Assembly: GCF_024198255.1 (NCBI RefSeq)
Contig: NZ_JAJVKW010000017.1
Location: forward strand, 1 to 64,000
Direction: 5' to 3'
From: Myxococcus guangdongensis
GTDB lineage: Bacteria; Myxococcota; Myxococcia; Myxococcales; Myxococcaceae
Length of the DNA: 64,000 nt
Shown: one piece after another, positions 3,482 to 51,476 of the stretch
Position numbering within the stretch: position 1 is the stretch's first letter
Layout of the letters: each line of letters starts with the position of its first letter
The notes under the pieces: generated by a model
The model's input: the letters and a program-made list of their open reading frames with translations, nothing else
Databases searched by the model: none
What the model was told of the DNA's origin: nothing
Program-made: the position numbers and the translations under genes

Positions 3482-4581
3482 CACGCCACTCGAATCGTGG
3501 GCCGAGGTCCCTCCGGCGCGCCCTGCCCCGACTGTCCCGGATGCTCCGGCAGGAGCAGGTCGTACGGATTCATCGCGTCACCCGCCAGGCACTCCAGCTC
3601 CACGTCCAATCCCAACCCATGACGTCGCGCCAGCGCGATGAGCACGCCCGTCACCGCCTCGTCCTCCAACGAGAACCCCGTGGAGTCGAACACCGTGGAC
3701 CGCTCCCGCCACTCCCCGAACCGCTCGGGATGCTGGACCACCTCGATGATGCCCGGACCAATCTGCTCGGGCCGCAGCTGCTGGCACTCCCCTTCCACCA
3801 GCGCCTGCGGCAGGAAGTCCGGACACACCAGGCTGCGCTCCAGCAGCGAGCGAGGCAGCTCCAACTTCCCCGGCAGGTCCGAGCCCACCGCGTTGACGTG
3901 CACCCACGGCTTGAACCGCCCGTCCTCCAACACCGGCCCCTCCCCCACGCCCACCGACGTCACCGTGCACACGATGTCCGCCTCCGCCTCCACCATCTCC
4001 AACGGCACGGCCCGGACATCCAATCCCAGGAACCCCGCCCGCCCCGCGAACGAGCGCTGCGCCACCGGGTCCACGTCAAAGACAAGCACCCTCTCAATGG
4101 AAAACAACCGCGACAGCGCATGCAACTGCGTCACCGCCTGGGCGCCGGCGCCCACCAGCCCCACCACCCGACTCTCCGGATGCGCCAGGTGCCGGCTGGC
4201 GATGGCGGACGCGGCCCCCGTGCGCAGCGCCGTCGCCAGCACTCCGTCCACCAGCGCCGTCAGGTGGCCCGTCGCGCAGTCATAGACACTGTTCGTCGCG
4301 ATGATGGTGGGAACCCCGTACCGTCTGGGATTCATCGGGTTGTAGCCGACAACTTTGATGGTGATGGATTCGCCCTGCCGCATGACCGGCATCCACTCGA
4401 GCACGCCCGTCCGGGTGTTGCGCAGCGTGAAACCCTCGCGCTGCCGAAGCTCCGTGCGAGCGAGGTCGAACGTTCGGAAAGCCGTCTCCACCGACTCGAT
4501 GACCCGGTCCATCAGGACATCGATTCCCACTTCGTGCACGAGCCTGCGCAAGTCCGCCTGGGTGACGAGGAGTGTCTTCAC
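3481..4581 (-). CDS. Ornithine cyclodeaminase / SbnB-family NAD-dependent enzyme
   Basis: Mu-crystallin/ornithine cyclodeaminase fold. Family members make proline from ornithine, pipecolate from lysine, or (SbnB-like) precursors of 2,3-diaminopropionate, all common NRPS building blocks. Visible features are SITIKVVGYNP with the substrate Lys near residue 76, the VDG...ATALRTGAAS core near 112-125, and the Rossmann motif GAGAQA at 144-149. I chose GTG at 4581 because GAGGGAG lies five bases upstream, giving 366 residues, the usual family length. A TTG at 4644 would add 21 residues with no family match. It is the first gene of the NRPS operon and overlaps the next start. The likely role is supplying a non-standard amino acid for the peptide. 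Which reaction it catalyses cannot be read from the sequence. Confidence 0.9.
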   Translation of the reverse strand: MKTLLVTQADLRRLVHEVGIDVLMDRVIESVETAFRTFDLARTELRQREGFTLRNTRTGVLEWMPVMRQGESITIKVVGYNPMNPRRYGVPTIIATNSVYDCATGHLTALVDGVLATALRTGAASAIASRHLAHPESRVVGLVGAGAQAVTQLHALSRLFSIERVLVFDVDPVAQRSFAGRAGFLGLDVRAVPLEMVEAEADIVCTVTSVGVGEGPVLEDGRFKPWVHVNAVGSDLPGKLELPRSLLERSLVCPDFLPQALVEGECQQLRPEQIGPGIIEVVQHPERFGEWRERSTVFDSTGFSLEDEAVTGVLIALARRHGLGLDVELECLAGDAMNPYDLLLPEHPGQSGQGAPEGPRPTIRVA

Positions 4582-23966: not shown

Positions 23967-24326
23967 ATGGCCTGTCAGACCCCCGCCCTACCCTGCTTCA
24001 CGTCAAGCCTGGAGGTGGCCTTGTTCGACACCTGTGGTGGATGTGAGCGACGTGGTGGCTCCGGTGAAATCTTCGACTGGTGCGCCAACTGTGAGTTGTC
24101 CCTGTGCCCGCGATGCATGACACGAGGGTGCTGCGACGAGTTCCCCGCGGAGTCGGGACGCGGCGCGCCCCGGTTGTTGCCGGACCCGCCCGAGGACGAC
24201 GACCTCCCCCTGCCCGAGCACTTCGGTGGGCGGTGCTGCTCCAGCGCCCGCGCGGTGGCGTGCTCATGCGCGTTCCACTGGGTCTGCGAGCGGCACGGCG
24301 ACCAGCACATCGGCACGCACGACTGA
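23967..24326 (+). CDS. Small Cys-rich, probably zinc-binding protein
   Basis: About 119 residues with 14 or more Cys. Two clusters are seen: a first CxxC array (CGGCERRGG, WCANCELSLCPRCM, GCCDEFP) that looks like a treble-clef or B-box-type zinc site, then an acidic linker (PPEDDDLPLPE) and a second cluster (GGRCCSS, CSCAFHWVCERHGDQH) with Cys and His ligands. No signal peptide is evident, so it is probably cytosolic. The start is uncertain: ATG 23967 follows GGAG closely, and GTG 24015 just before the first Cys cluster is the alternative. It is convergent with the hybrid kinase gene, six bases apart. No known family was recognised. Confidence 0.6.
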   Translation: MACQTPALPCFTSSLEVALFDTCGGCERRGGSGEIFDWCANCELSLCPRCMTRGCCDEFPAESGRGAPRLLPDPPEDDDLPLPEHFGGRCCSSARAVACSCAFHWVCERHGDQHIGTHD

Positions 24327-33606: not shown

Positions 33607-35535
33607 GTGAATAACGGGGACCCCGGATTGCTCGGGTGCTTAGAGAATGTGAAAGTACACCTCGAGTCGTCCGCATTCGTCCCCTCTCGAGGCCCCTTCA
33701 GCGTGAGCGCCCGACCCGGTCTTGCCTTCGCAGTGTCCGTGGAACAGGGAGTCCCCTCCGCCCTCCCCTCCCGCGCCATCGAAGTCGACGTCGGCGTGGC
33801 GCTCCCCACCGCCTTCGGTGGACTGCGCAAGGTCCTCAAGGCCTGTGAGGACGCGGCTCCCGACGTCCACCGCGCCATCGCCGCCGCACACCCCTCCGAG
33901 TGGAACCGGCTGTTCCCGGGCACGACGCAGGGAGTCCCCGCGCTCGAGGACCTGGCGCTGTCCCCCTCCGAGCGCCGCCTCCACCGTGAATCCGAGCAGG
34001 CGTTCTGGATTCTCACCGTGGCCGCGCGGACCATCGTGGAGACGCTGCGCGCCAGCGGCCGCCCCCTCGTGCTGCATGGCGCGGGCGAGTGTGACCTGGT
34101 CAGCCTGCGCGCCGTCATGCGCGCCGCCGAGTGGGCCCGGCTGGACGGCCTGGATGGCACCCTGCTGCTCACCGGCTGGCGGATGCGACGCCCCCATGGC
34201 GCCGCCGCCTTCGAGTCCCGACGACAGGCCTATCTCGACGCGCTGTGCGACCGCATGCGCGTCCCCCACGCCTCCGGTCCTGGCCCCGTGTCCTCGCGAG
34301 CGATGGAGCCGACAGTGGACCTGGAGGGCCGCTACCTGCGGCTCGTCGTGGATGAGTCGGAGTCCCGCGAGGCTCGCGTGGCCGCGGCCATCCTCGCCGT
34401 CCGCAGCTGCTTCTTCACCACGAACTACGAGGGCGCGCTGCTGGCCGCCGAGCACGGCCTGGCGCTGCTCGAGTCCGCGCCCGAGCCCCACTTCCCCGGG
34501 CGCGTGGTCCAGGCCTGGGAGGCGCTCGACTCGGGCCTCACCACGCCGGCCATCGAAATCGACCGCGCGAGCCTGGGCGACGAGGACGAGCTGAAGGCGT
34601 TGCTCCACCGGTGCATGGGCGTGGTGCACGTCTTCACCGGCTCGCACGACGACGCCATGGCCGCGTTCGGCCGCGGGCTCGAGTGCCGGCTGCCTCCCGA
34701 GCTGCGCGCGCGGCTGCACATGTTCCGCGCGCTGACGCTGACCAAGCGCTTCGGTCAGCTCCCCAATGCCCGCGCGGAGGTCGAAGCGGGGCTCGCGGAG
34801 CTGGCGCGAAGCACCGCGCCGGACCGCGCGCTGCAGGAGGGCTGGCTGCGCAACGTGTGCGCGCTGACCTGGTTTCAGGAGCGCAAGCTGGACAAGGCGC
34901 TGGTCGAGGAGAAGCTCGCCATGCGCTGCGTGGGCGACCTGCACGACGCCAGCGCCACCCATCTGAAAATCAACCTCATCTCCAACGCCAGCTACCTCCA
35001 GGAGTCCGCGCGGCAGTTCGCGGACGCCATCAGCACGTGGCGGCGCTTCGAGGGCATCAGCGAGCGCTGGGGCGTCAACTTCTCCAAGCACCACCGCTAC
35101 CGACTGGCCGGCCTGGAGTTCGCCGCGGGCCAGCGCGACGAGGCCGTGGAGCACTTCCAGCTGGCCTATGCCAGCGCGGAGGCCCTGCGCGACTCGTTCC
35201 ACCGTCAGGTCATCGCGGCGGAGCTGGGCCGCCTGTTCCTCGACGATGGACGGATGGACCTGGCGGTGGAGTGGTTCGCTCGCGCCGAGCAGCACGCCCG
35301 CGAGATTGGCGAGCCCTTGAAGGCGGCGGAGAGCCTCGCGGGCCTGTCCCTCGCGGCGGGACGCGAGGACTGGTCCGAGGCCCTGCGCTGCGCTCGGGCC
35401 AGCACCACCTGGCCCAAGGAGACCCAGGCCCTGGTGGACGCCCTCACGAAGTCGGATGCGAAGGCGGTGCACGCGCTGCTGCCCCGCCCTCGCACGAAGC
35501 TGAACCGGCCGTTCGACTCGGTCAGCCTCTACTGA
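33607..35535 (+). CDS. TPR-repeat protein with a degenerate P-loop-like N-terminal region
   Basis: A 642-residue cytosolic protein. The first 240 residues contain ASGRPLVLHGAGECDLVSLRAVMRAAEW, placed and shaped like a STAND/AAA P-loop but without GKT/S, so NTP binding is doubtful. The remainder is a chain of helical TPR-like repeats (HVFTGSHDDAMAAFGRGLEC, NARAEVEAGLAELA, LAGLEFAAGQRDEAVEHFQLAY, LDDGRMDLAVEWFARAEQHA), probably a protein-interaction scaffold. The C-terminus, TKLNRPFDSVSLY, is a distinct tail. The GTG at 33607 directly follows the benE hairpin and lacks a ribosome-binding site. GTG 33649 is a plausible alternative. I recognise no characterised homologue. Confidence 0.8.
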   Translation: MNNGDPGLLGCLENVKVHLESSAFVPSRGPFSVSARPGLAFAVSVEQGVPSALPSRAIEVDVGVALPTAFGGLRKVLKACEDAAPDVHRAIAAAHPSEWNRLFPGTTQGVPALEDLALSPSERRLHRESEQAFWILTVAARTIVETLRASGRPLVLHGAGECDLVSLRAVMRAAEWARLDGLDGTLLLTGWRMRRPHGAAAFESRRQAYLDALCDRMRVPHASGPGPVSSRAMEPTVDLEGRYLRLVVDESESREARVAAAILAVRSCFFTTNYEGALLAAEHGLALLESAPEPHFPGRVVQAWEALDSGLTTPAIEIDRASLGDEDELKALLHRCMGVVHVFTGSHDDAMAAFGRGLECRLPPELRARLHMFRALTLTKRFGQLPNARAEVEAGLAELARSTAPDRALQEGWLRNVCALTWFQERKLDKALVEEKLAMRCVGDLHDASATHLKINLISNASYLQESARQFADAISTWRRFEGISERWGVNFSKHHRYRLAGLEFAAGQRDEAVEHFQLAYASAEALRDSFHRQVIAAELGRLFLDDGRMDLAVEWFARAEQHAREIGEPLKAAESLAGLSLAAGREDWSEALRCARASTTWPKETQALVDALTKSDAKAVHALLPRPRTKLNRPFDSVSLY

Positions 35536-36172: not shown

Positions 36173-37279
36173 TCAGCCGCGTCCCTCGCTCGACCCGAAG
36201 GCCCGAGCCGGAGAGAACGGCGCCGCGAGTCCCTCGCGCCCCGACGCCACTTGTTCCACCACCAGCGCCGCCGCATGGGCGCCGGTGAGAATCCCCTGCC
36301 CACCCAACCCCGTGGCCACGAACGTGCGCCGCGTGCCCGGGTAGCGCCCCAGGTACGGACGGCCATCCGGCGTCACCGCGCGCAGCCCGGCCCACGCGCG
36401 CACGAAGCGAGCCTCGCGCAGACGCGGCGCCAGCTTCGCCACCGTGGCGCTCAGGTGCAGAAGGCCCGTGGGCGTCACGTTCTCCACGAAGCCCACGTCC
36501 TCCTCCGTGGCCCCCACCACCAGCTCCCCCGCACGCCACGGCGCCAGGTACGTCGGCCCGGACACGACGCGCGACAAGGAGAGCCCCGGCTGGTGCACCA
36601 CCATCATCTGCCCTCGAACCGGCTTGAGTGACAGCGGAGGCAACCCCGGGAACGTCGAGGACCAGGGCCCCGCGCTCACGAAGAGCTGGTCCGCGCGAAG
36701 CGTCTCGCGGTCCGTGCGCACCACCACGGCGTCGGAGGTCTCCTCCACCGCACGCGCGGCCTCACCGAGCCGCAGCCGCACACCCGCATGGGACGCCGCG
36801 CCCAGCAGCGCGTTGACGTAGCCCTCCGTGTCCACCATGTGGCCCCGCGCCGTCTCGAAGGCGCCCAGCAGCGGCGTCCCTTCCAGCGCGGGCTCCAGCT
36901 CCACCAGACGCGCGGCGTCCACCCACGTGCCCAGCTCCTCCGGATGCTTCGACGCCCGCTGCGCGAGCGCGTCACGGCCCTTCGCATCCGCGGCGATGCG
37001 GAGGATGCCCTGTCCGCGGCGGAGCAGCGCGCCTTCGGGGAGCGCGTCCAGCTCGGCCGCCAGCGCATCCCTGCCCGCGCGCGCGAAGGCCAGCATGTCT
37101 GCGTCGTCGTAGAGGCGCACGGAGGGAATCGCCACGCCCGCCGCCGCGCGAGAGCCTCGGCCTCCCGGGTCCACCGCGTCCAACACCGTCACGCGCGCGC
37201 CGAGCGCCGCCAGCCGCCTCGCGGCCGACAGCCCCACCACGCCCGCGCCGAGAATCAGGACCTCCGAGCTGAAACCCAT
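36173..37279 (-). CDS. FAD-dependent amine oxidoreductase, glycine oxidase (ThiO)-like
   Basis: A 368-residue D-amino-acid-oxidase-superfamily protein. The FAD-binding motif ILGAGVVGLSAARRLAALG is at 8-26, followed by the Glu/Asp-ended strand VTVLDA. The middle has the substrate domain with ELEPALEGTPLLGAF and GHMVDTEGYVNAL, and the C-terminus has RAWAGLRAVTPDGRPYLGRYPGTRRTFVATGLGGQGILTG, the usual second FAD-contact region. Relatives oxidise glycine, sarcosine or D-amino acids to the imine with hydrogen peroxide. ThiO supplies thiazole nitrogen in thiamine synthesis, but no thi genes are near, so the substrate stays open. Cytosolic. Confidence 0.92.
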   Translation of the reverse strand: MGFSSEVLILGAGVVGLSAARRLAALGARVTVLDAVDPGGRGSRAAAGVAIPSVRLYDDADMLAFARAGRDALAAELDALPEGALLRRGQGILRIAADAKGRDALAQRASKHPEELGTWVDAARLVELEPALEGTPLLGAFETARGHMVDTEGYVNALLGAASHAGVRLRLGEAARAVEETSDAVVVRTDRETLRADQLFVSAGPWSSTFPGLPPLSLKPVRGQMMVVHQPGLSLSRVVSGPTYLAPWRAGELVVGATEEDVGFVENVTPTGLLHLSATVAKLAPRLREARFVRAWAGLRAVTPDGRPYLGRYPGTRRTFVATGLGGQGILTGAHAAALVVEQVASGREGLAAPFSPARAFGSSEGRG

Positions 37280-38436: not shown

Positions 38437-40737
38437 TCAAAGTGGCGAGGCGCCTTCGCTCCAGCGGGTGAACTGCATTCGCAGCTCACAGGTGTAGCGG
38501 CCCCGCTCGTCGCGGAGCCAGAGCTGCTCGGGTGCCGGGTACATCTCCTCCACGGAGAGACGCTCGGCCTCGCGGGCCAGGTGCGAGAGCAGGTCCAACG
38601 CGAAGGGGCTCGCGGTGTCGATGAGGTAGGGCTTGCGCTCCTTCGTGCTGCGCATGAAGACGAACCGAGGCCAGCCGCGCAGGTGTCGCTCACGCTGCGC
38701 GGCGAGGAACAGCTCGAAGCCCGAGGGGCGCGCGAGGTGCTCGGAGGACAATTCCCAGCGCTCGCGCTGGTACACCGCGCCGCCGATGCTCAGCCGGGGC
38801 AGGTGCTGTCCCCGCGTGCGCAGCGGCGCATGGAGCACCTGGGGATGCGCCAGCGCGGCGAAGGGCGGGTACGACGAGAAGTCGTCCAGCGGCAGGTACA
38901 GGTGCAGCCGCTCACCCTTCCCGTCCACGAGCACCGGGCCCTGGGACGTGGGCAGGACCTTCACGTCGCTCGGTGTGAGCGCGCCGTCCTCGACGTCCAG
39001 CACGTCCGACACCGAGTAGACGAGCCGCCGGCCCGGGAACACGTAGAAGCCCTTGTTGCGGCGGCGGATGGACAGGCCCACGAGTCCTCGCGCGGAGGGG
39101 TCCGAGTCCAACCAGCGCGAGGCCACGGCGGAGTAGCGCTCCTTCGACGGGAAGAACGCGCTCAGCCAGCTCCGCAGGAGGAGGTGGTGATGCACTCGCG
39201 CGAGCATCACCTCGAAGCCCGCGCCGTCAGGCTTCGCCGCGAGGCAGACATCCGGCAGCGCGTAGCGGCCTCCCGGCGTGGACGTGCCGAGGAAGTCCAC
39301 GGGCAACGTGCGGGCGCGCTCCGGTGACTCGTCCAGCAACACCGGGGGCACCGGCGAGAAGCGGCTGCCCGTCACCTGGTCCGGGCGCAATCGCACCGCG
39401 TAGTCGAGCAGGTCCACCGGGCGCTCGTCCGTGCCGAGCGCCTCGCGCACCTGCTCACGGAAGCCCTGCTGGACACGCTCGCCATAGGCGGCCGACAACT
39501 CGAGCGGACCGGTCAGCGAGGACTCGAGCTCCTCGGTGAAGCGGCGGCCGAAGCGCAGACGGAACGGAGAGCTGGCCTCCTCGTAGAGGATGAGCCGGTC
39601 CGCGTACACCTGACCGTCTCCTCGCCGCGCGGGCTTGCCGGTGGCCTCCGTGAAGCGCGCCTCCAGTTCGAGGAGCAGCACCTTGCGGCGGCTCAGGTCC
39701 GCGGTCTCGAACTCGGCCTTCAGTCCCGACAGCGTGTCCAGGCGGGACAACCAACGTGAGCGTGCCTCCAGCGCTGGCAGCGCGGCGACGGCATCCCGCA
39801 CGCTCTCGAAGGTCGTGAAGTCATTGGGTCGGAACGGCAGTCCCCAGAGCAGCAGCGCGCCCTTCACCAGGGGCAGCGCGGCGCGCTCGGCGTCCTCCAC
39901 CGCGAGGCCCAACACCTTCGCGGCGGCGGCGGGGGTCGGATGCTCCCGGAGCACGGACAGGAGGCGCTCGGCGCTCTCGGACAGAGGCACCTCCAGCTTC
40001 AGCACCTCGCAGGCGGCACGGCCGGGGGACACCGTGAAGAGCGGGTTGAGCCGCAGCGGGAGATGGGGTCGCAGCGTGCGCTCACGGCCCACCGCGCGCG
40101 CCAGCTCCGTCACCGCCCAGAAGGAGAAGAACGTGCGTCGGCGCGTGTCACCGCTCGCCACCGTGCGCACGTCGAAGCCGTCTTCCTCCGTGCGCTCGCC
40201 GTAGGAGATGGGGCCGAAGAAGCTCGTGGTCTCGTTCTTGGCGCAGAAGCGCTGGAGGTACGTGTAGACCTGCCTCTCCACCCGGCGCCCGTCAGACGTG
40301 TCCTTGCGCGCACCATCGCGCAGGTAGCGCGCCCAGACGTTGTCGAACATCGCGGGGCTGGAGAGGAACACCGCCTCCTGGATGGAGGGCTCCGCCGCAC
40401 GTTCGCGCAGCTTCGAGCGCAGCGCCGAGCGCTCCTGTGCATGACGCTCCTGGAGGGCCTTGTATCCGGAGCGAAGACGCTCCAGCACGGCGAAGCGCTC
40501 CGAGCCCGCGGGAGCCCAACGGGGGGCCGTGTCGTTCTCGAGCAACGCGCGGAGGACAGGCGCCTTGACCGGGCTGCGTTCCGCGCTCAGCGCCTCCAGG
40601 AGTGACTGCTCCTCCGCGAGCCATCGGTTCGCGTCATCCACCAGCGCGGCGGAGAACCCGAGCGACTCCAGCCAGTCGAAAGGGAAACCGGCGTGGCGGA
40701 GCACGAACACCTCGCCCAAGGTCCAGCGTCCGCTCAT
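38437..40737 (-). CDS. Short LanB-like protein (lantibiotic dehydratase N domain / PEARL-like), copy 2
   Basis: A 766-residue protein of the lantibiotic dehydratase N-terminal family, whose members use aminoacyl-tRNA to glutamylate Ser/Thr or (PEARLs) to add amino acids to a peptide. Family-like marks are LRHAGFPFDWLESLG near 13-27, YTYLQRFCAKNETTSFFGPISYG at 158-180, and the C-terminal FVFMRSTKERKPYLIDTASPFALDLL with EEMYPAPEQLWLRDERGRYTCELRMQF. The separate elimination domain of full LanB (about 300 residues) is missing, so dehydroamino acid formation is not expected from this chain alone. ATG 40737 overlaps the preceding stop (ATGA). It is paralogous to the gene at 42365-44689. Confidence 0.85.
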   Translation of the reverse strand: MSGRWTLGEVFVLRHAGFPFDWLESLGFSAALVDDANRWLAEEQSLLEALSAERSPVKAPVLRALLENDTAPRWAPAGSERFAVLERLRSGYKALQERHAQERSALRSKLRERAAEPSIQEAVFLSSPAMFDNVWARYLRDGARKDTSDGRRVERQVYTYLQRFCAKNETTSFFGPISYGERTEEDGFDVRTVASGDTRRRTFFSFWAVTELARAVGRERTLRPHLPLRLNPLFTVSPGRAACEVLKLEVPLSESAERLLSVLREHPTPAAAAKVLGLAVEDAERAALPLVKGALLLWGLPFRPNDFTTFESVRDAVAALPALEARSRWLSRLDTLSGLKAEFETADLSRRKVLLLELEARFTEATGKPARRGDGQVYADRLILYEEASSPFRLRFGRRFTEELESSLTGPLELSAAYGERVQQGFREQVREALGTDERPVDLLDYAVRLRPDQVTGSRFSPVPPVLLDESPERARTLPVDFLGTSTPGGRYALPDVCLAAKPDGAGFEVMLARVHHHLLLRSWLSAFFPSKERYSAVASRWLDSDPSARGLVGLSIRRRNKGFYVFPGRRLVYSVSDVLDVEDGALTPSDVKVLPTSQGPVLVDGKGERLHLYLPLDDFSSYPPFAALAHPQVLHAPLRTRGQHLPRLSIGGAVYQRERWELSSEHLARPSGFELFLAAQRERHLRGWPRFVFMRSTKERKPYLIDTASPFALDLLSHLAREAERLSVEEMYPAPEQLWLRDERGRYTCELRMQFTRWSEGASPL

Positions 40738-42368
40738 CCGCGCGTCCTCTCCAGGATGGACTTCGTCACCAACATCTCCACCAGCTTCGCCCGCTGCGCT
40801 TCCGGAACCTGGGGCAACGCGCTCGTCACGTCGGTGGGCTCGGTCAACCGGGCCAGCGCCGGCGCCAGGCGTGCGTCCATCGCGACCACCCCACCCGTGC
40901 GCAGGTTCGCCGCGTACCACGAGGGCTTCGGTGTCCCTTCGAGCGTCGCGGGCAGGCACACCACCGCGCAGTCCGCGTCCAGGCGGATGTGCGTGGCGCC
41001 ATCGAGCACTGGAGGCGCGAGCAGGAAGCCCGCGGCGACACGGCCCGGACTGAGCGGGGCCCGCGTCATCAGCCGGCTCGCCAGCGACGCGAGGACCGCG
41101 GGTCGGCGCGCCCCGTCAATCGTGCCCGGTCTCTCGATGGGGCGACTGCGGGACAAGTCGCGGTCCGCCGGAGCGTCACCGGGATTCCCCCACCAGCGCT
41201 CGAGGTCACGGACCCTCGCGATGCGCTCCACCGACGCGTGGAATGGACGCACACCGGCCAGATGGTCGAAGAAGCGCGGGCCCTCCAGCGCGGCCAGCGT
41301 GGCCTCCAGCGACGCCTCGTCCACGCCTGGAGCACCGACCCACCACTCCGCGACGACGCGCACGCCCGCGGCCTTCAGTCGTGCGTATCCCTGGACCAGG
41401 AGCTCCACGGGGATGAAGCAGTGGTCAGGGTCGACCACCCTGCCGTTCTCGATGCCACAGAACCCCACCACCGCCGTGTGGCAGCCGCTCTCCACGAGCA
41501 CGTCCGCCGCCAGGAGCGAGCCGAGCGAGACATGCCCCGCCCACCGCGCGCCCCCTGTGTACGCACGCACGTCGGACAGCGCGCACCGTCCGAGCCAGCC
41601 GTCACGAGGTCCGGACTCCGGCTTCGCGCCGTCGGCATCCATCACCGCCCAGTCCGGGTCATCGCCCCACGGGTACGGAGCCAGGACCTCCAGCCCGAGC
41701 CCATCGGAGATCCACACGAGGTCCTCGGCGCTCGGGGCACCGGACAGCGGGCGCACACGCCAGCGCAACGCGGGGACCTGCTCCGGGAACGTGGCGCGCC
41801 GGAACGCGGGCATCCGCGCCAGCACCTTGTGATGCGTCGAGGCAAAGGGCCCGGCGACCTCCAAGGCCACATGGGGCGGACACGCCTGCGCGAGCGACGC
41901 AGCGGCCGGGAGTTGGAGGTCTCGCTCCAGCCACAGGCGAACGCACTGCGCATCCTCGAGCCGCGCGAGCACGGCCGCCACGTCCTCCGAGTACGGCGAG
42001 GGCATCCCCGACACGCGCTGGACGTCCGCGCTCCGCTCCGTCGTCCCGGACTCCAGCTCCACGTCATCGAGCCGAAGGTGCACACCCTGGGGGGCACCGG
42101 AGATGGCCGTCAGCACCGCCCCCAACGCGCGAAGCTCCGACAGGGGACTTCGTTCACGCAGGCCCTGCGCGACTCGCAACAGGAGCAGCTCGCGCATCGT
42201 CTGGGATGATGGGAGGGATGACTCGCGCGACAGACACTCCGCCTCCACGGACTCGGAGGAGAAGACCCGGCGGGTGAAGTCCCTCGCCAGGTCCAGCAGG
42301 TGCCACCCCTCGGGGACGTCGGGCACGAGCGTCACGTCCCGATGTGGAGGCAACACCAACCACTTCAT
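40734..42368 (-). CDS. Unassigned protein between two LanB-like enzymes, degenerate TIM-barrel-like
   Basis: A 544-residue protein without a clear family. The middle reads like alternating strands and helices of a barrel (VHLRLDDVELESG, LEVLAPYPWGDD, SGCHTAVVGFCGIENGRVV, GVRVVAEWWVGAPGVDEASLEATLAAL), and the last of these resembles radical SAM peptide-maturase barrels. A CxxxCxxC cluster is absent, so it would be a non-catalytic relative if related at all. The C-terminal 150 residues (DGATHIRLDADCAVVCLPATLEG, NLRTGGVVAMDARLAPALARL) form a second domain, possibly peptide-binding. Both ends overlap neighbours by ATGA, so it is made stoichiometrically with the two LanB-like proteins and probably forms a complex with them. 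Confidence 0.8.
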   Translation of the reverse strand: MKWLVLPPHRDVTLVPDVPEGWHLLDLARDFTRRVFSSESVEAECLSRESSLPSSQTMRELLLLRVAQGLRERSPLSELRALGAVLTAISGAPQGVHLRLDDVELESGTTERSADVQRVSGMPSPYSEDVAAVLARLEDAQCVRLWLERDLQLPAAASLAQACPPHVALEVAGPFASTHHKVLARMPAFRRATFPEQVPALRWRVRPLSGAPSAEDLVWISDGLGLEVLAPYPWGDDPDWAVMDADGAKPESGPRDGWLGRCALSDVRAYTGGARWAGHVSLGSLLAADVLVESGCHTAVVGFCGIENGRVVDPDHCFIPVELLVQGYARLKAAGVRVVAEWWVGAPGVDEASLEATLAALEGPRFFDHLAGVRPFHASVERIARVRDLERWWGNPGDAPADRDLSRSRPIERPGTIDGARRPAVLASLASRLMTRAPLSPGRVAAGFLLAPPVLDGATHIRLDADCAVVCLPATLEGTPKPSWYAANLRTGGVVAMDARLAPALARLTEPTDVTSALPQVPEAQRAKLVEMLVTKSILERTRG

Positions 42369-44689
42369 CGCTCCTCCTCCCGCGAGACGGTGGGAGCGCC
42401 CGACATCAGCGTGCAGCGCAGCTCCACCGTGTGGCGACCCATCGGTCCACGCAGCCAGAGCTGCTCCGGCCCGGGCAACATCTCCGAGAGCAGGACCTCC
42501 TCCTTCTGCTCCAGCAGGTTGAGGAACACGCGCAGCAGCGGCGGACTGCGCACGTCCACCAGCACCGGTTTGCGCTCACCCTTGAACTTCGCGAAGACAC
42601 ATGGGGGAAGTCCTCGCGCATCCCACAGGCCCACCGCGACACGCAGCCTCGCGCGGTCGTCCTTGCACGCCAGCAGCGCCTCACACGCCGCCGCATCCAG
42701 CCTCCACTGCTCGCGCTGCACCACCACTCCGCCGAGCGTCACCCGGGGCGTGTGCTCCCCCAGGGGCACCTTCAACGGCCGGATGCGCGGCAGCGAGAAC
42801 GCCGTGTGCACCGCGCTCTCCAGCTCGCCGTTGTAGAGGCAGACCTCGGAGCCCAGCCGCTTCGACACCAGCCGCGCGCTCTTGCCATCGCTCTCGACGA
42901 ACAGGTCATCCAGCGGGATGCGCCACGCGGAGGCATGCGAGCTCACACCGCCCAGCTCCACCACCGGCCCCGGGAACTCGGAGGGCAGCAAGCCCGTGCG
43001 CCGCGACGGCAACACCGTCACCAGAGGCACGGAGCGGGACAGCGCCCCGAGCGCGCGCACCATCTCGCTCTCCACCTTCGCTCGCGACGGATGGAACTGG
43101 AGCGCCCAGCCCCACACGAGCGCCGTGTCGTGGATGTCTCCCATCACCAGCGTGTAGTCGCCCCGGCCCCACGCCTCCACGTCCGTGGCGCCCACCAATA
43201 GGTCCACCGAGGTGACGAGCGGCAGGGTCCGCGCCGCATCCCACGAGGGGCGCTCCACCGCGCCCAGCTCGACGGACCGCGAGGCCGCGTCGGGAACGGA
43301 CTTCGCCAGCAACTCCGCCACCGACGTGTCCAGCGGCACCGGCAGGTCCGCGGAGGCCGCTGCGACCTTCCAGAAGGGCACCGTGCGCGAGCCCACCTTG
43401 CGAGCCACCGCCTCACGGGCCGCGTCACGCGTGCGCCACGCCGCCTCCGCCATCCACGCCAGCGCCGGCTCCAGTCGCGCGCCCAGCTCCCGCGCGCGCT
43501 CACCGCCGACCTCCAGCCGCAGGTCTCCGCCGCACTCCTCCCGCAGCGGGAGACGGTCCTGGTAGAAGTTGTGGGACTCGGACGCGGGGCCTCGCTCCGT
43601 CGGCGGCGCCACGCCCCACAGCTCCTTCGCCTTCCGCGCGAAGGCGTCCTGGAGCGACATCTTCCCGCTCGCATCCGCCGCCCCGTAGCGCCCCATCAAC
43701 TCCAGCAGCGTGCTCAGCCCCTCGACGTGACGACGCGCGCCCGCGCCCGGCAACGCGGCGACCCGCTGGGCCAGGTCATCCACCGGGTGGTGCACCGCGG
43801 ACGGAACCTCGAGCTGATGCGTGAGCAAGGCCTTGTCACAGCCGAGCCGCAGCGCCTCGCGCGCCATGCCGGGCGCCACGCCGAGCGAGGACGCGAGCGC
43901 CGCCAACGTGCGCGTTCCATCCGCCAGCTCCACGATGCGCGGCAGCAGCTCCTCCGCGCTCTCCGGCGTCGGCCCCGCCTTGCGCGCGGGCATCTCCGCG
44001 AAGGCCTTGCGACGCGGCACCAGCCACGAGGCGATGTCCGGGTCGAAGGCAATCGCGCGCACCAGCCCCTGCACCAACCACGACGCCGCGAAGGCGTTGC
44101 GTCCCACCAGCGTCTCGGGTCCGGACCAGCGCAGCGTCACGCCCGTGGGCACCTGTGCATCGACGCGGCCGTAGTTGATGGGACCGAAGAAGCCCATCGT
44201 CTCGTTCTTCGCGCACAGTCGCTGGAGGTAGCTCGCCACCTGCCGGCGCAGCCGCGAGCCCTCGCGCTTCGCGAGCAGGTCCCTGGCCACGGGGGGACTG
44301 GAGCTGGCCACGGCCTCCAGGAAGCGCGGCTCCCGGCACAGCGCCTCCATCTGCGTCTCCACCGCTGGCAGCTCACGCTCCAGCGCCGACGCGAGGGCGG
44401 CCTCCGCGTCCTGGGCCGCACGGGCGCGGGTGTTCCACTCGGCGAAGCGCTCGGGGGCCTCCAGGCCCTCGGTGTCGATGGGACGGCCCGCCTTGAGCGC
44501 GGAGAGCAGCTCCCGGGGAGGGCGGTGCACACGCGGGCCCTGGGCACGCAGCGCATCCAACGCGCGTCGCTCCGCCTCGAGCACGCGCGCCCAGCGCGCC
44601 GACTCCGGACACCCCAGCCGCTCCAGCCAGTCGAACGGGAAGCCTGTCGCGCGAACGACGAGGTGGGGGAAGAGGGTCCAGCCCTTCAT
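42365..44689 (-). CDS. Short LanB-like protein (lantibiotic dehydratase N domain / PEARL-like), copy 1
   Basis: A 774-residue paralogue of the protein encoded at 38437-40737 and the first gene of the three-gene operon. Shared marks are VRATGFPFDWLERLG near 12-27, ASYLQRLCAKNETMGFFGPINYG at 152-174, and the C-terminal FAKFKGERKPVLVDVRSPPLLRVFLNLL with EMLPGPEQLWLRGPMGRHTVELR. Overall identity to copy 2 is low outside these blocks, so the two have diverged to different jobs. The LanB elimination domain is absent here too. The ATG lies 17 bases after GAAGGG and 72 bases from the upstream kinase stop, with a hairpin between. The substrate peptide is unknown and no tRNA or precursor gene is adjacent. 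Confidence 0.85.
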   Translation of the reverse strand: MKGWTLFPHLVVRATGFPFDWLERLGCPESARWARVLEAERRALDALRAQGPRVHRPPRELLSALKAGRPIDTEGLEAPERFAEWNTRARAAQDAEAALASALERELPAVETQMEALCREPRFLEAVASSSPPVARDLLAKREGSRLRRQVASYLQRLCAKNETMGFFGPINYGRVDAQVPTGVTLRWSGPETLVGRNAFAASWLVQGLVRAIAFDPDIASWLVPRRKAFAEMPARKAGPTPESAEELLPRIVELADGTRTLAALASSLGVAPGMAREALRLGCDKALLTHQLEVPSAVHHPVDDLAQRVAALPGAGARRHVEGLSTLLELMGRYGAADASGKMSLQDAFARKAKELWGVAPPTERGPASESHNFYQDRLPLREECGGDLRLEVGGERARELGARLEPALAWMAEAAWRTRDAAREAVARKVGSRTVPFWKVAAASADLPVPLDTSVAELLAKSVPDAASRSVELGAVERPSWDAARTLPLVTSVDLLVGATDVEAWGRGDYTLVMGDIHDTALVWGWALQFHPSRAKVESEMVRALGALSRSVPLVTVLPSRRTGLLPSEFPGPVVELGGVSSHASAWRIPLDDLFVESDGKSARLVSKRLGSEVCLYNGELESAVHTAFSLPRIRPLKVPLGEHTPRVTLGGVVVQREQWRLDAAACEALLACKDDRARLRVAVGLWDARGLPPCVFAKFKGERKPVLVDVRSPPLLRVFLNLLEQKEEVLLSEMLPGPEQLWLRGPMGRHTVELRCTLMSGAPTVSREEER

Positions 44690-44761: not shown

Positions 44762-47954
<3,193 letters not shown>

Positions 47955-47977
<23 letters not shown>

Positions 47978-48824
47978 GCGAACAGAAAAGCAGTGACTTG
48001 GGCTGGGCCGCGCGGCGGCGCGCGTCTCCCAGGTCCACCACGCACACGACGCGAGACTCGCGGCCCACGCACACCCGCGCGGCCACCGTGTCGCAATGCT
48101 CGAGGATGCGGCGCAACCCGAGGCCCGCTCCGCCCCCGGACGCATCCACCTTCACCTTCTGGCCCCACCCGTCCAACGCCCGGGCGAACGACCCCGGCCG
48201 CAGCCCGCCGAAGCGGTCCGCCACCTCCATCCACATCCGGCCATCCTCCACCGCGAACCCCAGCTCGCAGGCGTCCTCCGGCGCCACCTCGCGCACCTCG
48301 GTGCGACGGTGCGCGTAGCGAGGCTCGCCCTTCGCGTCCACCGGCGCATCCAACAGCGCGTTGGCGGCGATTTCATGCACCACGTCCGCCACCAGCCCCG
48401 CGGCCACCCGGCTGCCCTCGGCCGCGCCCACCGCCGTCGCCGCCGCCGTGGCCGCCTCGTGGATGTCCGTCACGCGGCGCAGCGGACGGCGCGTCACCTC
48501 CGCGCGCTCGGGCAGCAGCGTTCCGGACGCCTTGAGGACCGCGCCCACCAGGAGCGCTTCCCACAGGGACGGGCCGCCGTCGCGCTCGCGCGTGGCGAGC
48601 AGCAGCGCCGGAGGCTCGCGCCGCAGCCACTGCGCGTGCTCGGGCTTGAGGACTCCGTCGAACAGCAGGAGGCCGCGCGAGACCGTCGCCGGGGACGTCA
48701 CCGCGGAGGCCCCCACCCCACCCTGCGTCAGCACAGGCACCACCTGCTCGAGCGCGGCCGCGGGCAGGGAAGCATCTGCAATCAGCAGGAGGCCACTGGC
48801 CTCCAGGTGGGGTGCGGTACTCAA
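47955..48824 (-). CDS. RsbW/anti-sigma-type HATPase protein
   Basis: A 289-residue protein. The N-terminal 110 residues have no clear family (possibly a degenerate receiver-like fold: LLLIADASLPAAALEQVV). The C-terminal half is a GHKL ATPase: N box VVHEIAANALLDAP with Asn155, EVADRFGG with Asp203, and the glycine lid SGGGAGLGLRRILEHCD near 229-245. There is no phospho-accepting His, so it fits the anti-sigma/RsbW serine kinase group that phosphorylates STAS proteins. Its stop overlaps the start of a kinase that carries a STAS domain with Ser60/Ser61, a likely substrate. The TonB-receptor gene ends nine bases upstream, so all three share a transcript. Confidence 0.88.
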
Positions 48825-48833
48825 ACGAGGTGC

Positions 48834-51476
48834 CTAGTAGCGTACCTTGACTTCACTGAAGAAGGATTGGGGCGCCACGGGGAAGCCGTGGGACTCCTCG
48901 TAGGCTGCGTTGAAGAGGTTGGAGCCCAGGAACGACACGGAGATGCCGTCGTAGACGTTGAAGCCCACCCGCGCGCTGGCGGTGAGGTAGCTGGGCAGCT
49001 CCACGCGGGAGCTGGGCAGGCCCGTGGCCTCGTCCACCTGGAAGCCCGGGTCGAAGCGCGAGCCCACGAAGAGGGCGTACAGCTCCACGAAGGCCACCTT
49101 GCCGATGTTGGTGCGGCCGCGCGCGTAGATGCGGTGGGTGGGCGCGTAGTCCAGCGGCGTGCGGGGCCCGTCGTCGAAGGGCACGCTCTTGGCGTCGAGG
49201 AACTGGTAGGCCACGTCGAAGGACGAGTTGATGGCCGGAATCTGCGCGGCCGCCTCCAGCTCCGCGCCGGCGATGCGCGCGTCACCCATGTTCCGGAACT
49301 GCGACACCGAGCCGAACACCAGCTGCTGATTGATGAAGTTCTTGGCCACGTTGTAGAAGCCCGTCCCCGTCAGGCGCACCCGCCGGTCGAAGGGCCAGAA
49401 GTCCACCGAGGCCTCGAAGGTGTCGAGCGTCTCCGCCCGCAGGCCCGCGTTGCCCACCAGCGTGGAGGCGTACATCTGCTGGTTGATGGCCAGCTCCGCC
49501 AGCGTGGGCGCGCGGAAGGCGCGGCCGTAGTTGGTGCGCAGCGTGAGCAGCTCCGGCACCGCGTGGAAGACGATGCTGGCGCGCGGCGAAATCTGGTCCG
49601 TGCGCTCGCGCCAGACGCGCTCCGGAATCTGGTAGCGGTCATAGCGGGCGCCCGCGCTCACCACCACGCGCTCCAGCGGGCGGTACTCCGCGTCCACGAA
49701 GCCACCGATGATGGTCTGCTTCGTGTCGTCCATCGTGAGCTCGGGCAGCACGTTGGGCACGTTGACCTGGTCGAACTTCACGTCGCCTCCGAACGTCACG
49801 GACACCGGGCCCGCCGAGTACAGCGCGCGCGCCTCGCCGCCCAGCCGCCGACGCTTGCCCAGCGCGCGCGTGGGGTCGCCACCGAAGGCGTTCTCCAGCA
49901 CCACGTCGCGGCGCTTGAAGAAGCCGTACACCTGACCGAACAGGCGCAGGCTGTCCGTCACCTGCTGGTCCACCTGGGCGGAGGCGTTGAGGTTCTGGAC
50001 GGACTCCTCGTCATTCGGCGTGTAGTGGCAGCGGCCGCAGTTGCCCACCGTCGAAATCTGGGTGTGCGAGCCACCCGGGCGGCCGATGGTCGCGTCCGTG
50101 AAGTCTGCGTCCAGCGCCAGCGGCCCCACGCGCACCTTGCCGTTGACCTGGTGCACCATCGAGTCCTGGTTGGTGTCCACCAGGCCCGTGGTGGGGTCAT
50201 TGAAGAGCTGGGCCCCGTCCGAGCCGAAGCCGTAGTAGCCGAGCAGCGCCTCCACCGGCCCGCCGCGGCCGGCCACGTTGCCGTGCAGCCGCCACGTCTG
50301 GTCCTGGCCCGCGAGCACGCGCGCCTCCGCGCCCACGTTGCGACCCGGGGCGATGAGGTCCGCGGGCTGCCGCTCGATGATGTTGATGACGCCGCTGAAG
50401 GCGTTGGAGCCGTACAGCGACGAGCCCGGGCCCCGGATGACCTCCACCTGCTTGAGGTTGACCAGGGGCGTCGTCTCGTCCGCGTAGAACTGGCCCGTCC
50501 ACGGGTCCGTCAGCGGCCGGCCGTCCTTCAGGAGCAGGAGGCGGTTGGACAGGTAGTTGGAGCCCAGGCCGCGCGCGCTCACCGCCGCCTTGCGCATGGA
50601 GCCCCGGCGGCACTCCATGCCGGGGAAGTACTGGATGGCCTCGCACAGCGTGAACTGGCCGGTGCCCTCGAGCTCCTCGGCCGGAATCCACGACACCGTC
50701 AGCGGCACGTCCGCGATGCGCTGGTTGCGCTTGCCGGCCGTGGTCACCACCGCCTCGCTGAGCACGCGGTTGACGGACTCCTCCAGCGGGTCCGCGCCGC
50801 CCAGCGGATCCAACCCGGCCAGGCCCGACGGGGGCGGCATGGCCCGGTCCAGGGTGGGCTCGGCGAAGGGCGCGCTGATGGGGACGTTGTCGGTGGCGAC
50901 GGGCGCGGCGGGCGGGCTCTTCGTCGCGGGCAGCACGGCGCCGTGGCCCGGGGTGGAGGCGGGCGACGAGATGAGCGGATCCGCGATGCTGGGGCCGGGC
51001 TGGGCGCCAGGGCTCGCCACGGGGGCGGCGGGCAGCGGCGCGGGGGGATGCGACTCCACCGTGGGCGCGGGGGTGACGGGCACGGGGGGCTCGGCCGTCA
51101 CGGACTCCGTCGCGGTGGAAGGGTCGTCCTCCAGGCCACCGCCCAGCACGGGGATGTCCGAGTCCGTGGCCTCCGTGCCGCGAGGAGGCTTGCGCGTCTT
51201 GGGCGGCTTCTTCACCGCCGCGCGCGGGGGCTTGGTGGCGGGCGTCTTCGTCGTCGTGGCCGCGGGCTTCGTCCCGTTCGCCACGCGCTTCTTGCGCTTC
51301 ACCTTGGGCTGCGACTCGGAGGCCGCGTTGGTCTCTTGCGCCTGGGCCACCGCCGGGTGGGCCACGGCCAGCGCGCAGAGGACGGCTGACACCGTGAAGA
51401 AGGCGCGAAGGCCCCGGCGCTTCACGTGAGCACGCACCGCGCCTGGCAGCGGATCACCACACACAATCGAGTGCAT
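48834..51476 (-). CDS. TonB-dependent outer-membrane receptor with a CxxCH motif
   Basis: An 880-residue outer-membrane receptor. A signal peptide (FFTVSAVLCALAVAHPAVAQAQ) is followed by a long, basic then Pro/Ala-rich linker (about 40-200), the plug domain (VVTTAGKRNQRIADVPLTVSWIPAEELEGTG, LCEAIQYFPGMECRRG, VEVIRGPGSSLYGSNAFSGVINII), and a 22-strand-type barrel ending in SEVKVRY with the C-terminal aromatic. Receptors of this class import siderophores, cobalamin, haem or other metal complexes using TonB. Unusually, CGRCH lies at 480-484 in what should be a loop. No ton genes adjoin it. Start ATG 51476; the 25 residues upstream in frame are rejected. A weak Fur-like site lies in the promoter region. 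Confidence 0.93.
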   Translation of the reverse strand: MHSIVCGDPLPGAVRAHVKRRGLRAFFTVSAVLCALAVAHPAVAQAQETNAASESQPKVKRKKRVANGTKPAATTTKTPATKPPRAAVKKPPKTRKPPRGTEATDSDIPVLGGGLEDDPSTATESVTAEPPVPVTPAPTVESHPPAPLPAAPVASPGAQPGPSIADPLISSPASTPGHGAVLPATKSPPAAPVATDNVPISAPFAEPTLDRAMPPPSGLAGLDPLGGADPLEESVNRVLSEAVVTTAGKRNQRIADVPLTVSWIPAEELEGTGQFTLCEAIQYFPGMECRRGSMRKAAVSARGLGSNYLSNRLLLLKDGRPLTDPWTGQFYADETTPLVNLKQVEVIRGPGSSLYGSNAFSGVINIIERQPADLIAPGRNVGAEARVLAGQDQTWRLHGNVAGRGGPVEALLGYYGFGSDGAQLFNDPTTGLVDTNQDSMVHQVNGKVRVGPLALDADFTDATIGRPGGSHTQISTVGNCGRCHYTPNDEESVQNLNASAQVDQQVTDSLRLFGQVYGFFKRRDVVLENAFGGDPTRALGKRRRLGGEARALYSAGPVSVTFGGDVKFDQVNVPNVLPELTMDDTKQTIIGGFVDAEYRPLERVVVSAGARYDRYQIPERVWRERTDQISPRASIVFHAVPELLTLRTNYGRAFRAPTLAELAINQQMYASTLVGNAGLRAETLDTFEASVDFWPFDRRVRLTGTGFYNVAKNFINQQLVFGSVSQFRNMGDARIAGAELEAAAQIPAINSSFDVAYQFLDAKSVPFDDGPRTPLDYAPTHRIYARGRTNIGKVAFVELYALFVGSRFDPGFQVDEATGLPSSRVELPSYLTASARVGFNVYDGISVSFLGSNLFNAAYEESHGFPVAPQSFFSEVKVRY

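What the first reader, a model, noticed from the sequence alone, without database searches (positions are those of the whole stretch)
38437..44689. Three-gene unit: two diverged short LanB/PEARL-like enzymes around an unassigned protein, no visible precursor
Seen: three genes joined by two ATGA overlaps. The outer two share GFPFDWLE, CAKNET...FFGPI and PEQLWLR...GR.T.ELR blocks, as expected for paralogues of the lantibiotic dehydratase N domain, and both lack the elimination domain. Known: such stand-alone domains can act as peptide aminoacyl-tRNA ligases or as split dehydratases. Inference: the trio is a tRNA-dependent peptide-modifying complex with a new middle subunit. No leader peptide, protease or exporter is adjacent, so the substrate may be distant, a protein, or the downstream 144- or 133-residue products.
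Basis: partly seen in the sequence, partly recalled or inferred. Interest (0 to 1): 0.8.

Follow-up and report, generated by a model that had tools for sequence, protein, structure and literature searches.

The report
Myxobacterial ammosamide-type tRNA-ligase gene cassette
Three linked bacterial genes encode two enzymes that probably borrow amino acids from transfer RNA and, between them, a helper that looks like a broken radical enzyme with a peptide-binding end; with two nearby genes they look like the core of a pathway that builds quinone compounds on a peptide, but here the peptide itself has not been found.

Summary
In detail: A (42365-44689), B (40734-42368) and C (38437-40737), minus strand, with two 4-nt ATGA overlaps. 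A and C match Lant_dehydr_N; B matches no Pfam family. A and C carry the published residues of peptide aminoacyl-tRNA ligases (PEARLs), including the two that separate PEARLs from split dehydratases. B models as a radical-SAM-like fold without CxxxCxxC, plus a C-terminal RiPP recognition element. Amm10 of the ammosamide cluster was described likewise in December 2025, role unclear (PMC12715798).

Two further genes belong. F6 (33733-35535, +) is found in exactly the 34 of 96 family genomes with full-length A and has the Lys-Asn-Lys register of the Trp hydroxylases BhaC1/AmmC1. F2 (36173-37279, -) is a glycine-oxidase-type enzyme. A Kitasatospora cluster combines homologues of all five with a PLALA carrier peptide. 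The 144- and 133-residue proteins are not trio-specific.

Verdict: a new myxobacterial variant of ammosamide-type PEARL pathways, with no carrier found nearby. The missing substrate is the open question.

The parts
42365..44689 (-). A: PEARL-type ligase (LanB N-domain family), 774 aa
   Evidence: Pfam PF04738 E 1.5e-16; 15 published PEARL positions kept, E575 as Asp in 32 of 32; TbtB 6ec7 profile match E 1.9e-14
40734..42368 (-). B: Amm10-like middle protein, 544 aa; single copy in the genome
   Evidence: radical-SAM-type fold, no CxxxCxxC in 34 of 34; single copy
41004..41735 (-). B residues about 212-455: radical-SAM-like barrel region
   Evidence: VIA-align rows NifB, HemN, AprD4, TsrM; profile comparison with a radical SAM alignment E 1.1e-4, probability 56%
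40737..41003 (-). B residues 456-544: RRE/PqqD-like domain
   Evidence: model pLDDT 88.5; first Foldseek rows TbiB1, TigE, TruD
38437..40737 (-). C: second PEARL-type protein, 766 aa
   Evidence: Pfam PF04738 E 1.7e-15; PEARL positions kept except E575, Arg in 32 of 32
36173..37279 (-). F2: FAD-dependent oxidoreductase of the DAO/glycine oxidase family, 368 aa
   Evidence: Pfam DAO E 2.7e-58; on C's strand in 30 of 32 trio stretches, 0-5 genes apart, next to C (-4 to 45 nt) in six; 46% identical to the Kitasatospora cluster's oxidase
33733..35535 (+). F6: TPR protein, 600 aa, proposed BhaC1/AmmC1-type hydroxylase
   Evidence: in 34 of 34 family genomes with full-length A, absent from 62 of 62 without; K338/N418/K589 register
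44762..47962 (-). F3: Ser/Thr protein kinase upstream of A (co-inherited, role unknown)
   Evidence: Pfam Pkinase E 1.1e-41; in 29 of 32 trio stretches, and matching fragments at the edge in two more, L036 and L054
47955..48824 (-). F4: 289-aa protein overlapping F3, GHKL-ATPase-like by eye (no call)
   Evidence: in 25 of 27 genus genomes, absent from the two that lack the trio; no Pfam match

Best explanation
The locus is the myxobacterial branch of the ammosamide/bha-type PEARL pathways. A and C are ATP- and aminoacyl-tRNA-dependent ligases (inferred from residues). B is an Amm10-like, probably non-catalytic scaffold: a radical-SAM-like fold without its iron-sulfur motif, with an RRE that binds the carrier (fold from models, role inferred). 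F6 is a TPR flavo-hydroxylase of the BhaC1/AmmC1 kind that oxidises a C-terminal aromatic residue to a quinone (inferred from co-occurrence and residue register). F2 is a glycine oxidase that turns an added glycine into an amino group (inferred from family, position and the known BhaG/Amm14 step). Proposed order: a carrier C-terminus is held by B's RRE, oxidised by F6, amino-acylated by A and/or C, and the adduct is cut to an aminoquinone by F2. In Kitasatospora and in one myxobacterial genome (G091) the carrier is a peptide ending in PLALA. In the window's genome neither that peptide (contig searched) nor a further PEARL was found, so its acceptor is unknown.
For: PEARL residues: of 15 positions named for BhaB7, A keeps 14 plus Glu575-to-Asp, C keeps 14 with Glu575-to-Arg (32 sequences each; apart from Glu575 at most one deviating row per position). 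Published PEARL-only pair Asp542/Arg803 of TglB (PMC11117183, section 10 read) = A D496/R758, C D496/R753. The genome's full-length dehydratase differs at 10 of the 15, with Val and Val at that pair. B: Foldseek TsrM E 8.1e-6, MgmA 1.3e-4, AprD4 3.1e-4; tblastn of B to four radical SAM-like places, E 6e-4 to 9.5e-4, three of them looked at and bearing CxxxCxxC; NCBIfam PhpK radical SAM in 5 of 13 members at E up to 10, best 0.013; RRE domain; same description as Amm10. F6: same 34 of 96 genomes as A; its Kitasatospora homologue precedes the ligases. Kitasatospora cluster: carrier ORF, F6, K1, A, B, C, four more LanB-like proteins, FMN reductase, two TldD-family proteins, F2 homologue. G091: carrier overlapping F6 by 4 nt.
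Against: No BhaA-like peptide end in 224 of 226.7 kb of the window's contig or in the other Myxococcus, Archangium and Citreicoccus stretches held; a carrier with a different end would be missed. The Kitasatospora TldD/TldE-type proteins have no BLAST match among the genes called in the 37 stretches. C has Arg where PEARLs have Glu575 (the TglB equivalent Glu564 is reported non-essential). The B model has low confidence (pLDDT 65.4, pTM 0.45), TM-scores of only about 0.2, and non-radical-SAM barrels follow (PdxJ, rank 8, E 6.3e-4). For B's C-terminal domain VIA-align ranks GdmN and NovN above the RREs. The F6 residue register was noticed and tested after the fact, and N414 would fit nearly as well. 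Nonomuraea keeps A and B but its third gene groups with Kitasatospora K6, not with C. I could not obtain BhaB7, TglB, Amm10 or BhaC1 sequences, so residue mapping rests on motif and spacing.
Confidence: 0.7

Rival explanations
1. A carrierless, repurposed cassette: the enzymes act on the C-terminus of a full-size protein instead of a dedicated peptide, or on an unlinked carrier of another kind.
For: Carrier and K1-type PEARL are present in G091 and Kitasatospora but the carrier was not found near the trio or near F6 in the other myxobacterial stretches; in the own genome only the trio and one full LanB matched this family, while A, B and F6 are all present in the same 34 family genomes.
Against: Only part of the genome could be searched for a short peptide; no gene called in the 37 stretches ends in Trp.
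Confidence: 0.2
2. A free-standing ligase that extends a small-molecule or NRPS product, as SnaE does in the threopeptin cluster.
For: SnaE-type clusters have no carrier peptide either (PMC11212132, part 1 and passages read); related Streptomyces LanB proteins sit with adenylation and carrier proteins; an NRPS gene lies at the window's edge, 2-3484, which made me raise this rival slightly.
Against: That NRPS gene is 35 kb from C, and its family was found in none of the other trio stretches, most of which reach about 9 kb either way of B; B has an RRE-like, peptide-binding fold; F6 and F2 point to the ammosamide type.
Confidence: 0.1
3. A split class I dehydratase: A and C glutamylate Ser/Thr and another protein eliminates glutamate.
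For: Both match PF04738 and the split enzyme TbtB.
Against: PEARL-only Asp and Arg are present; the only PF14028 match in the genome is in its own full LanB on contig C7; B matches no Pfam model.
Confidence: 0.03
4. A variant of the main reading: C is a pseudo-enzyme that only binds tRNA or carrier, so that the trio is a one-ligase complex.
For: The Glu575 position is Arg in 32 of 32 C sequences; in Nonomuraea both LanB-like proteins lose several positions.
Against: C keeps the other 14 positions; TglB Glu564 is reported non-essential (PMC11117183, section 10).
Confidence: 0.3

Closest known systems
Ammosamide (amm) cluster, Streptomyces sp. CNR-698: Amm10, AmmB1-4, AmmC1/C2, Amm14, Amm12/13 (PMC12715798, PMC11117183)
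   Same: PEARLs, an Amm10-like radical-SAM-like protein with RRE, a TPR protein, a glycine oxidase
   Different: In the window no carrier peptide, TldD/E pair or further PEARL was found nearby; the set sits behind a kinase gene in a myxobacterium
bha cluster of Bacillus halodurans (BhaA, BhaB PEARLs, BhaC1, BhaG)
   Same: PEARL residues, glycine oxidase, TPR-hydroxylase register; carrier ends in two relatives match BhaA-Ala residues 21-40 (Kitasatospora 15, G091 16 of 20)
   Different: No local carrier found here; two PEARL-type genes around an Amm10-like gene
Kitasatospora sp. NBC_00039 cluster on NZ_CP108290.1 (found here)
   Same: Orthologues of A, B, C in the same order, and homologues of F6 and F2
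   Different: Has the carrier ORF, five more LanB-like proteins, an FMN reductase and two TldD-family proteins
SnaE / NRPS-associated PEARL-like ligases (PMC11212132)
   Same: Stand-alone LanB N-domain, no carrier peptide
   Different: Here an RRE protein, a TPR protein and a glycine oxidase go with the ligases; the one NRPS gene seen is 35 kb away
TbtB, split glutamylation enzyme (6ec7)
   Same: The only LanB-family chain found by profile in the PDB sequences
   Different: TbtB has Tyr and Leu where A and C have the PEARL Asp and Arg (statement of PMC11117183)

Membership tests
PEARL | LanB N-domain (PF04738) without elimination domain PF14028 | tested here: met
   A and C match PF04738 only
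PEARL | Asp and Arg of the ATP pocket (TglB D542, R803) that split LanBs lack | tested here: met
   A D496/R758, C D496/R753, 32 of 32 each; mapped by motif and spacing
PEARL | tRNA 3'-end residues (BhaB7 R197, Q201, Y205, R208, R429) | tested here: met
   A at least 31 of 32, C 32 of 32 at each position
PEARL | ATP- and aminoacyl-tRNA-dependent amide formation | not testable with these tools
   biochemistry
Class I/split lantibiotic dehydratase | an elimination domain (PF14028) in or beside the glutamylation protein | tested here: not met
   the single genomic match is on contig C7, inside a full LanB
Radical SAM superfamily (B) | CxxxCxxC cluster motif | tested here: not met
   absent in 34 of 34
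Radical SAM superfamily (B) | (beta/alpha) barrel fold | tested here: inconclusive
   seven best Foldseek rows and the top VIA-align rows are radical SAM, but pLDDT is 65.4 and TM-scores are low
RRE/PqqD domain (B C-terminus) | strands followed by a winged-helix-like helical part, as in PqqD | tested here: met
   pLDDT 88.5; TbiB1, TigE, TruD lead Foldseek at E 0.0085-0.027; GdmN and NovN score higher in VIA-align
Amm10 | RRE C-terminus, AprD4/TsrM-like N-part, no Cys motif, in a PEARL cluster | tested here: met
   against the text of PMC12715798; no direct alignment to Amm10
BhaC1/AmmC1 hydroxylase (F6) | TPR domain and active-site Lys, Asn, Lys | tested here: inconclusive
   TPR_12; K338/N418/K589 against AmmC1 K350/N432/K602, 0.0003 in a simple post hoc permutation; FMN binding untested
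amm/bha-type pearlin cluster | carrier peptide encoded in the cluster | tested here: not met
   no BhaA-like end near the window's trio; met in G091 and Kitasatospora
amm/bha-type pearlin cluster | glycine oxidase gene | tested here: met
   F2, DAO family, next to C in six Archangium-type stretches; activity untested

The most novel reading that the evidence does not exclude
In Myxococcus and Archangium the cassette has lost its peptide carrier and its first PEARL, yet keeps two PEARLs, the Amm10-like RRE protein, the hydroxylase and the glycine oxidase. It may install a protein-bound aminoquinone on the C-terminus of a full-size protein, a tRNA-built redox cofactor rather than a secreted natural product, perhaps governed by the co-inherited kinase and GHKL-like pair.
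Probability: 0.13. Interest if true: 0.88.

Novelty: new variant of a known kind. Interest (0 to 1): 0.62.

Why it matters
The role of Amm10 was stated as unclear in December 2025. Here the gene for an Amm10-like protein stands between two PEARL-type genes in five genus-level groups from two phyla, mostly with 4-nt overlaps, which argues that it works in a complex with those two ligases. The myxobacterial set is close to the smallest that could make an aminoquinone by the known amm/bha chemistry. A Myxococcus xanthus strain (AM003) has it, so function can probably be tested genetically; whether the common laboratory strains have it was not checked. If the carrier is truly absent, the pathway modifies something not yet seen in this enzyme class.

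Tried and rejected
The 144- and 133-residue downstream proteins as carriers: rejected by distribution. F6's invariant C-terminal tail (R[TS]KLNRPFD.V.L in 32 of 32) as a PEARL acceptor: I favoured this until its lysine K589 fell in the register of AmmC1 K602, which the authors' model places at the substrate's carboxylate; it is now more likely part of an active site. A search for other conserved small ORFs (18-90 aa) between called genes gave none in more than 9 of 36 stretches (all called ones except L031), and the top families looked antisense or unrelated. Proteins ending in Trp: none among the genes called in 37 stretches, and no acidic ORF ending in Trp in the stretches scanned. A single-sequence PDB search with A found only chance rows; the profile was needed. 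Pfam on 13 B members gave nothing consistent. Papers: the listing (ammosamide, myxobacteria, pyrroloiminoquinone, PEARL, Amm10; at least three) holds no paper with both Amm10 and myxobacteria; the other searches asked other questions. I did not read every listed paper, and subscription papers are mostly not held.

Limits: co-occurrence counts are of related genomes, not independent events; in the genus the two genomes without the trio also lack F6 and F4, which one deletion could explain. In six Archangium-type genomes F6 lies 6-62 kb from the trio, and in G091 on another contig. The Kitasatospora gene table from PLSDB is incomplete. Pfam itself recognises only three of the seven LanB-like Kitasatospora proteins; the rest rest on my profiles. 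The Nonomuraea third gene's start is uncertain. Several stretches come from the same genome (for example L062 and L065), and stretches cut every 20 kb could hide an ORF on a cut.
Full report
What is there. Three minus-strand genes, A (42365-44689), B (40734-42368) and C (38437-40737), overlap by two ATGA tetranucleotides. A and C match Pfam Lant_dehydr_N (E 1.5e-16 and 1.7e-15) and nothing else; B matches no Pfam model. A and C are 31% identical. B is single-copy in its genome, an unnamed 11.2-Mb assembly; the closest named B genes, 78-79% identical, are from three Myxococcus species, among them M. eversor and M. qinghaiensis.

Conservation. I called genes mechanically in the window and 36 fetched stretches and grouped them by BLAST. 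A B gene was called in 34 of the 37. In 32 of the 34 it lies between an A and a C gene; the B/C overlap is 4 nt in all 32 and the A/B overlap in 26. L062 and L063 have B alone. Three stretches (L037-L039) were fetched for weak matches (E 6e-4 to 9.5e-4) that proved to be radical SAM genes with CxxxCxxC. In 195 genomes of the phylum 36 match the B profile: the 34 with full-length A, G084 with B alone, and G165 weakly and in part. The trio is also in Kitasatospora sp. NBC_00039. Nonomuraea gerenzanensis has A, then B (E 4.8e-28), then a LanB-like gene and two ABC exporters. In a tree of 22 LanB-like proteins the Kitasatospora and Nonomuraea A fall with the myxobacterial A (100/99) and the Kitasatospora C with the C (100/100); the Nonomuraea third protein groups with Kitasatospora K6 (100/100), not with C. 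So A-B-C is kept in Myxococcota and Kitasatospora, A-B in Nonomuraea too.

A and C are PEARL-like. Residues predicted or shown to bind ATP and the tRNA 3' end are listed for BhaB7 in PMC12945691 (passages and section 9 read) and PMC11962472 (passages and section 11 read). I mapped 15 of them by motif and spacing. In 32 A sequences all are kept except Glu575, which is Asp in 32 of 32; Arg197 and Tyr205 deviate in one row each. In 32 C sequences all are kept except Glu575, which is Arg in 32 of 32, and Phe755, which is Tyr in one. PMC11117183 (section 10 read) says that Asp542 and Arg803 of TglB occur only in PEARLs and are Tyr and Leu in split LanBs: both are present in A and C. The genome's own full-length dehydratase (contig C7) differs at 10 of the 15 positions, among them Val for Asp558 and Val for Arg815; its N-terminal alignment is unreliable. 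The same section says that TglB Glu564 is not essential, so C's Arg does not prove it inactive. PF14028 matches once in the genome, in that full-length enzyme. A split dehydratase is therefore unlikely.

B is a radical-SAM-like protein without its motif, plus an RRE. An AlphaFold2 model from 15 sequences has modest confidence (pLDDT 65.4, pTM 0.45). Foldseek's seven best PDB rows are radical SAM: TsrM (E 8.1e-6), MgmA (1.3e-4), AprD4 (3.1e-4); the eighth is PdxJ (6.3e-4), and TM-scores are about 0.2. VIA-align gives NifB Z 9.3 (158 residues, 4.4 A), HemN Z 9.2 (182, 4.3 A), AprD4 Z 8.5 (236, 8.5 A), TsrM Z 8.1 (284, 10.1 A), with unrelated barrels at Z 6-7. Sequence hints agree: five of 13 members match the PhpK radical SAM family (best E 0.013) and one an MgmA-type model (0.072), all weak; a profile comparison with radical SAM enzymes gives E 1.1e-4, probability 56%; AprD4 is the best PDB profile hit, E 0.27. 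None of 34 B proteins has CxxxCxxC, and no cysteine is invariant in alignment A1 of 13. Residues 456-544 alone model well (pLDDT 88.5); the leading Foldseek rows are TbiB1, TigE and TruD, at E 0.0085-0.027, with PbtF sixth; a ribosomal oxygenase and GdmN are among the next rows. VIA-align puts GdmN and NovN first (Z 9.2, 8.1), then TigE and MibB (Z 8.0), PbtF 7.5, TbiB1 7.2, PqqD 6.6. The shorter Nonomuraea B lacks this domain.

This matches Amm10. PMC12715798 (passages, sections 5 and 13 read) reports that Amm10 of the ammosamide cluster is conserved among ammosamide-like clusters, has an RRE-like C-terminus, an N-part like AprD4 and TsrM, no cysteine motif, and an unclear role. I had reached the same anatomy before finding that text. 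I could not align the proteins directly.

F6 (33733-35535, +) is a 600-residue TPR protein. It is found in 34 of 96 family genomes, exactly the 34 with a full-length A (E = 0 rows; 63 of 96 have some LanB-like match); the other 62 lack it, among them the two genomes of the genus without the trio. It lies in 25 of 32 trio stretches; in six Archangium-type genomes it is 6-62 kb away and in G091 on another contig, so the tie is not only neighbourhood. In Kitasatospora it directly precedes the ligases (37% identity). PMC9850906 (passages and section 15 read) describes BhaC1/AmmC1 as TPR proteins, BhaC1 purified with FMN but without an obvious flavin domain, that hydroxylate a C-terminal Trp, and names Lys391/Asn472/Lys654 (BhaC1) and Lys350/Asn432/Lys602 (AmmC1). 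Among F6's residues invariant in 32 sequences are K338, N418 and K589: spacings 80/171, against 82/170 in AmmC1 and 81/182 in BhaC1 (N414 would give 76/175). In 200,000 random placements a match this close to AmmC1's register occurred in 0.03%, and any K-N-K of such spacing in 1.2%; the tolerances were set after seeing the match. K589 lies in the invariant C-terminal tail R[TS]KLNRPFD.V.L. PMC12715798 also names a second TPR protein, AmmC2, so F6 could be of that kind.

F2 (36173-37279, -) is a DAO-family oxidase. It is found in 30 of 32 trio stretches, and in six Archangium-type stretches it follows C at -4 to 45 nt. The Kitasatospora cluster's oxidase is 46% identical and the best of 83 plasmid records (E 1e-58; next row listed 1e-18). 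In the amm and bha pathways a glycine oxidase turns a glycine added by a PEARL into an amino group (PMC11117183, passages and section 3 read).

The carrier. Upstream of F6, Kitasatospora has an ORF not listed in the PLSDB table, at L031:4955-5077, of 40 residues, ending IENKIAPLALA. PLALA is the end of BhaA-Ala and is described as highly conserved among several PEARL substrates (PMC11962472, passages); the last 20 residues share 15 with residues 21-40 of BhaA-Ala as named in the papers. The rest of that cluster has seven LanB-like proteins including A and C (Pfam recognises three of them; my profiles all seven), an FMN reductase, two TldD-family proteins and the F2 homologue; PEARL clusters are reported to carry TldD/E-like or M50 proteases (PMC10885120, passages). 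G091, a Myxococcaceae genome whose trio contig has the length of JAIBBQ010000107.1 (36-base check not made), has an ORF of 55 residues from its last ATG, ending EDIDFLLEEIENKIAPLALA, that overlaps F6 by 4 nt and shares 16 of 20 end residues with BhaA-Ala, and a homologue of the first Kitasatospora ligase, K1 (40%, E 7e-156). Scored against BhaA-Ala these two ends reach about 80; no other of 22,275 ORF ends in the sequences held, nor of 10,154 ends in 598 kb (including 160 kb more of the window's contig), passed 21. In the window's genome only the trio and one full LanB matched this family. So the window's variant appears reduced, or its carrier lies elsewhere or ends differently.

Mechanism, shown and inferred. 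Shown by sequence: families, residues, order, co-occurrence, carriers in two relatives. Inferred: that A and C use tRNA and ATP; that B is a scaffold presenting the carrier through its RRE; that F6 makes a quinone and F2 an aminoquinone. The upstream kinase F3 and F4 are co-inherited (F3 in 29 of 32 trio stretches; F4 in 25 of 27 genus genomes) and may regulate the set; no homologue was called beside the Kitasatospora trio, and the two genes before the Nonomuraea A are of other families.

The 133-residue family is in 49 of 96 genomes: 24 of 34 with full-length A and 25 of 62 without, one of these weak. The 144-residue family matches in 78 of 96, often in several copies; its strongest matches are in the genus. 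An NRPS gene lies at the window's edge (2-3484), 35 kb from C; nothing that I saw ties it to the trio.

Verdict. A real and widely kept module, best read as a myxobacterial variant of ammosamide-type PEARL pathways. The middle protein is a known unknown rather than a new one. The novelty lies in the reduced form, with no carrier found, and in the fixed A-B-C arrangement, which makes the role of Amm10-like proteins testable.

Noticed in passing
L062:9117-10832 (G044), L063:9171-10829 (G084): A B-type gene stands alone, with no LanB-like gene beside it; G084 has no full-length A and no F6. Unexplained.
   Followed up: partly
window 2-3484 (-): An NRPS gene (condensation, adenylation, carrier domains) runs off the window's edge, beside an ornithine cyclodeaminase-family gene at 3481-4581.
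   Followed up: no
window 16982-18397 (+): A true radical SAM enzyme (PF04055 E 2.8e-17) with CxxxCxxC at residue 168.
   Followed up: no
window 24096-24326 (+): A small cysteine- and histidine-rich ORF, missed by my gene caller, conserved in 8 stretches beside F12 genes; looks like a real gene.
   Followed up: no
L074 (BNCN01000007.1): A contig titled Comamonas sp. KCTC 72670 carries a myxobacterial B gene and has the length of contig C7 of G107, a genome of the window's genus that has the trio; the record looks mislabelled.
   Followed up: no
L089, L090, L091 (Streptomyces plasmids): PEARL-like proteins, in pairs or single, near adenylation and acyl carrier proteins, one beside methylaspartate mutase genes, and no carrier peptide annotated; they keep most of the mapped PEARL residues.
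   Followed up: partly
L101 (Nonomuraea gerenzanensis NZ_LT559118.1): Both LanB-like proteins around B have lost several PEARL positions, and two ABC exporters follow. The third gene's start is uncertain, and it groups with Kitasatospora K6.
   Followed up: partly
window 44762-51476 (-): A TonB-dependent receptor (27 of 32 trio stretches), F4 (28 of 32) and a Ser/Thr kinase with a weak STAS-like stretch (29 of 32) precede the trio; role unknown.
   Followed up: partly
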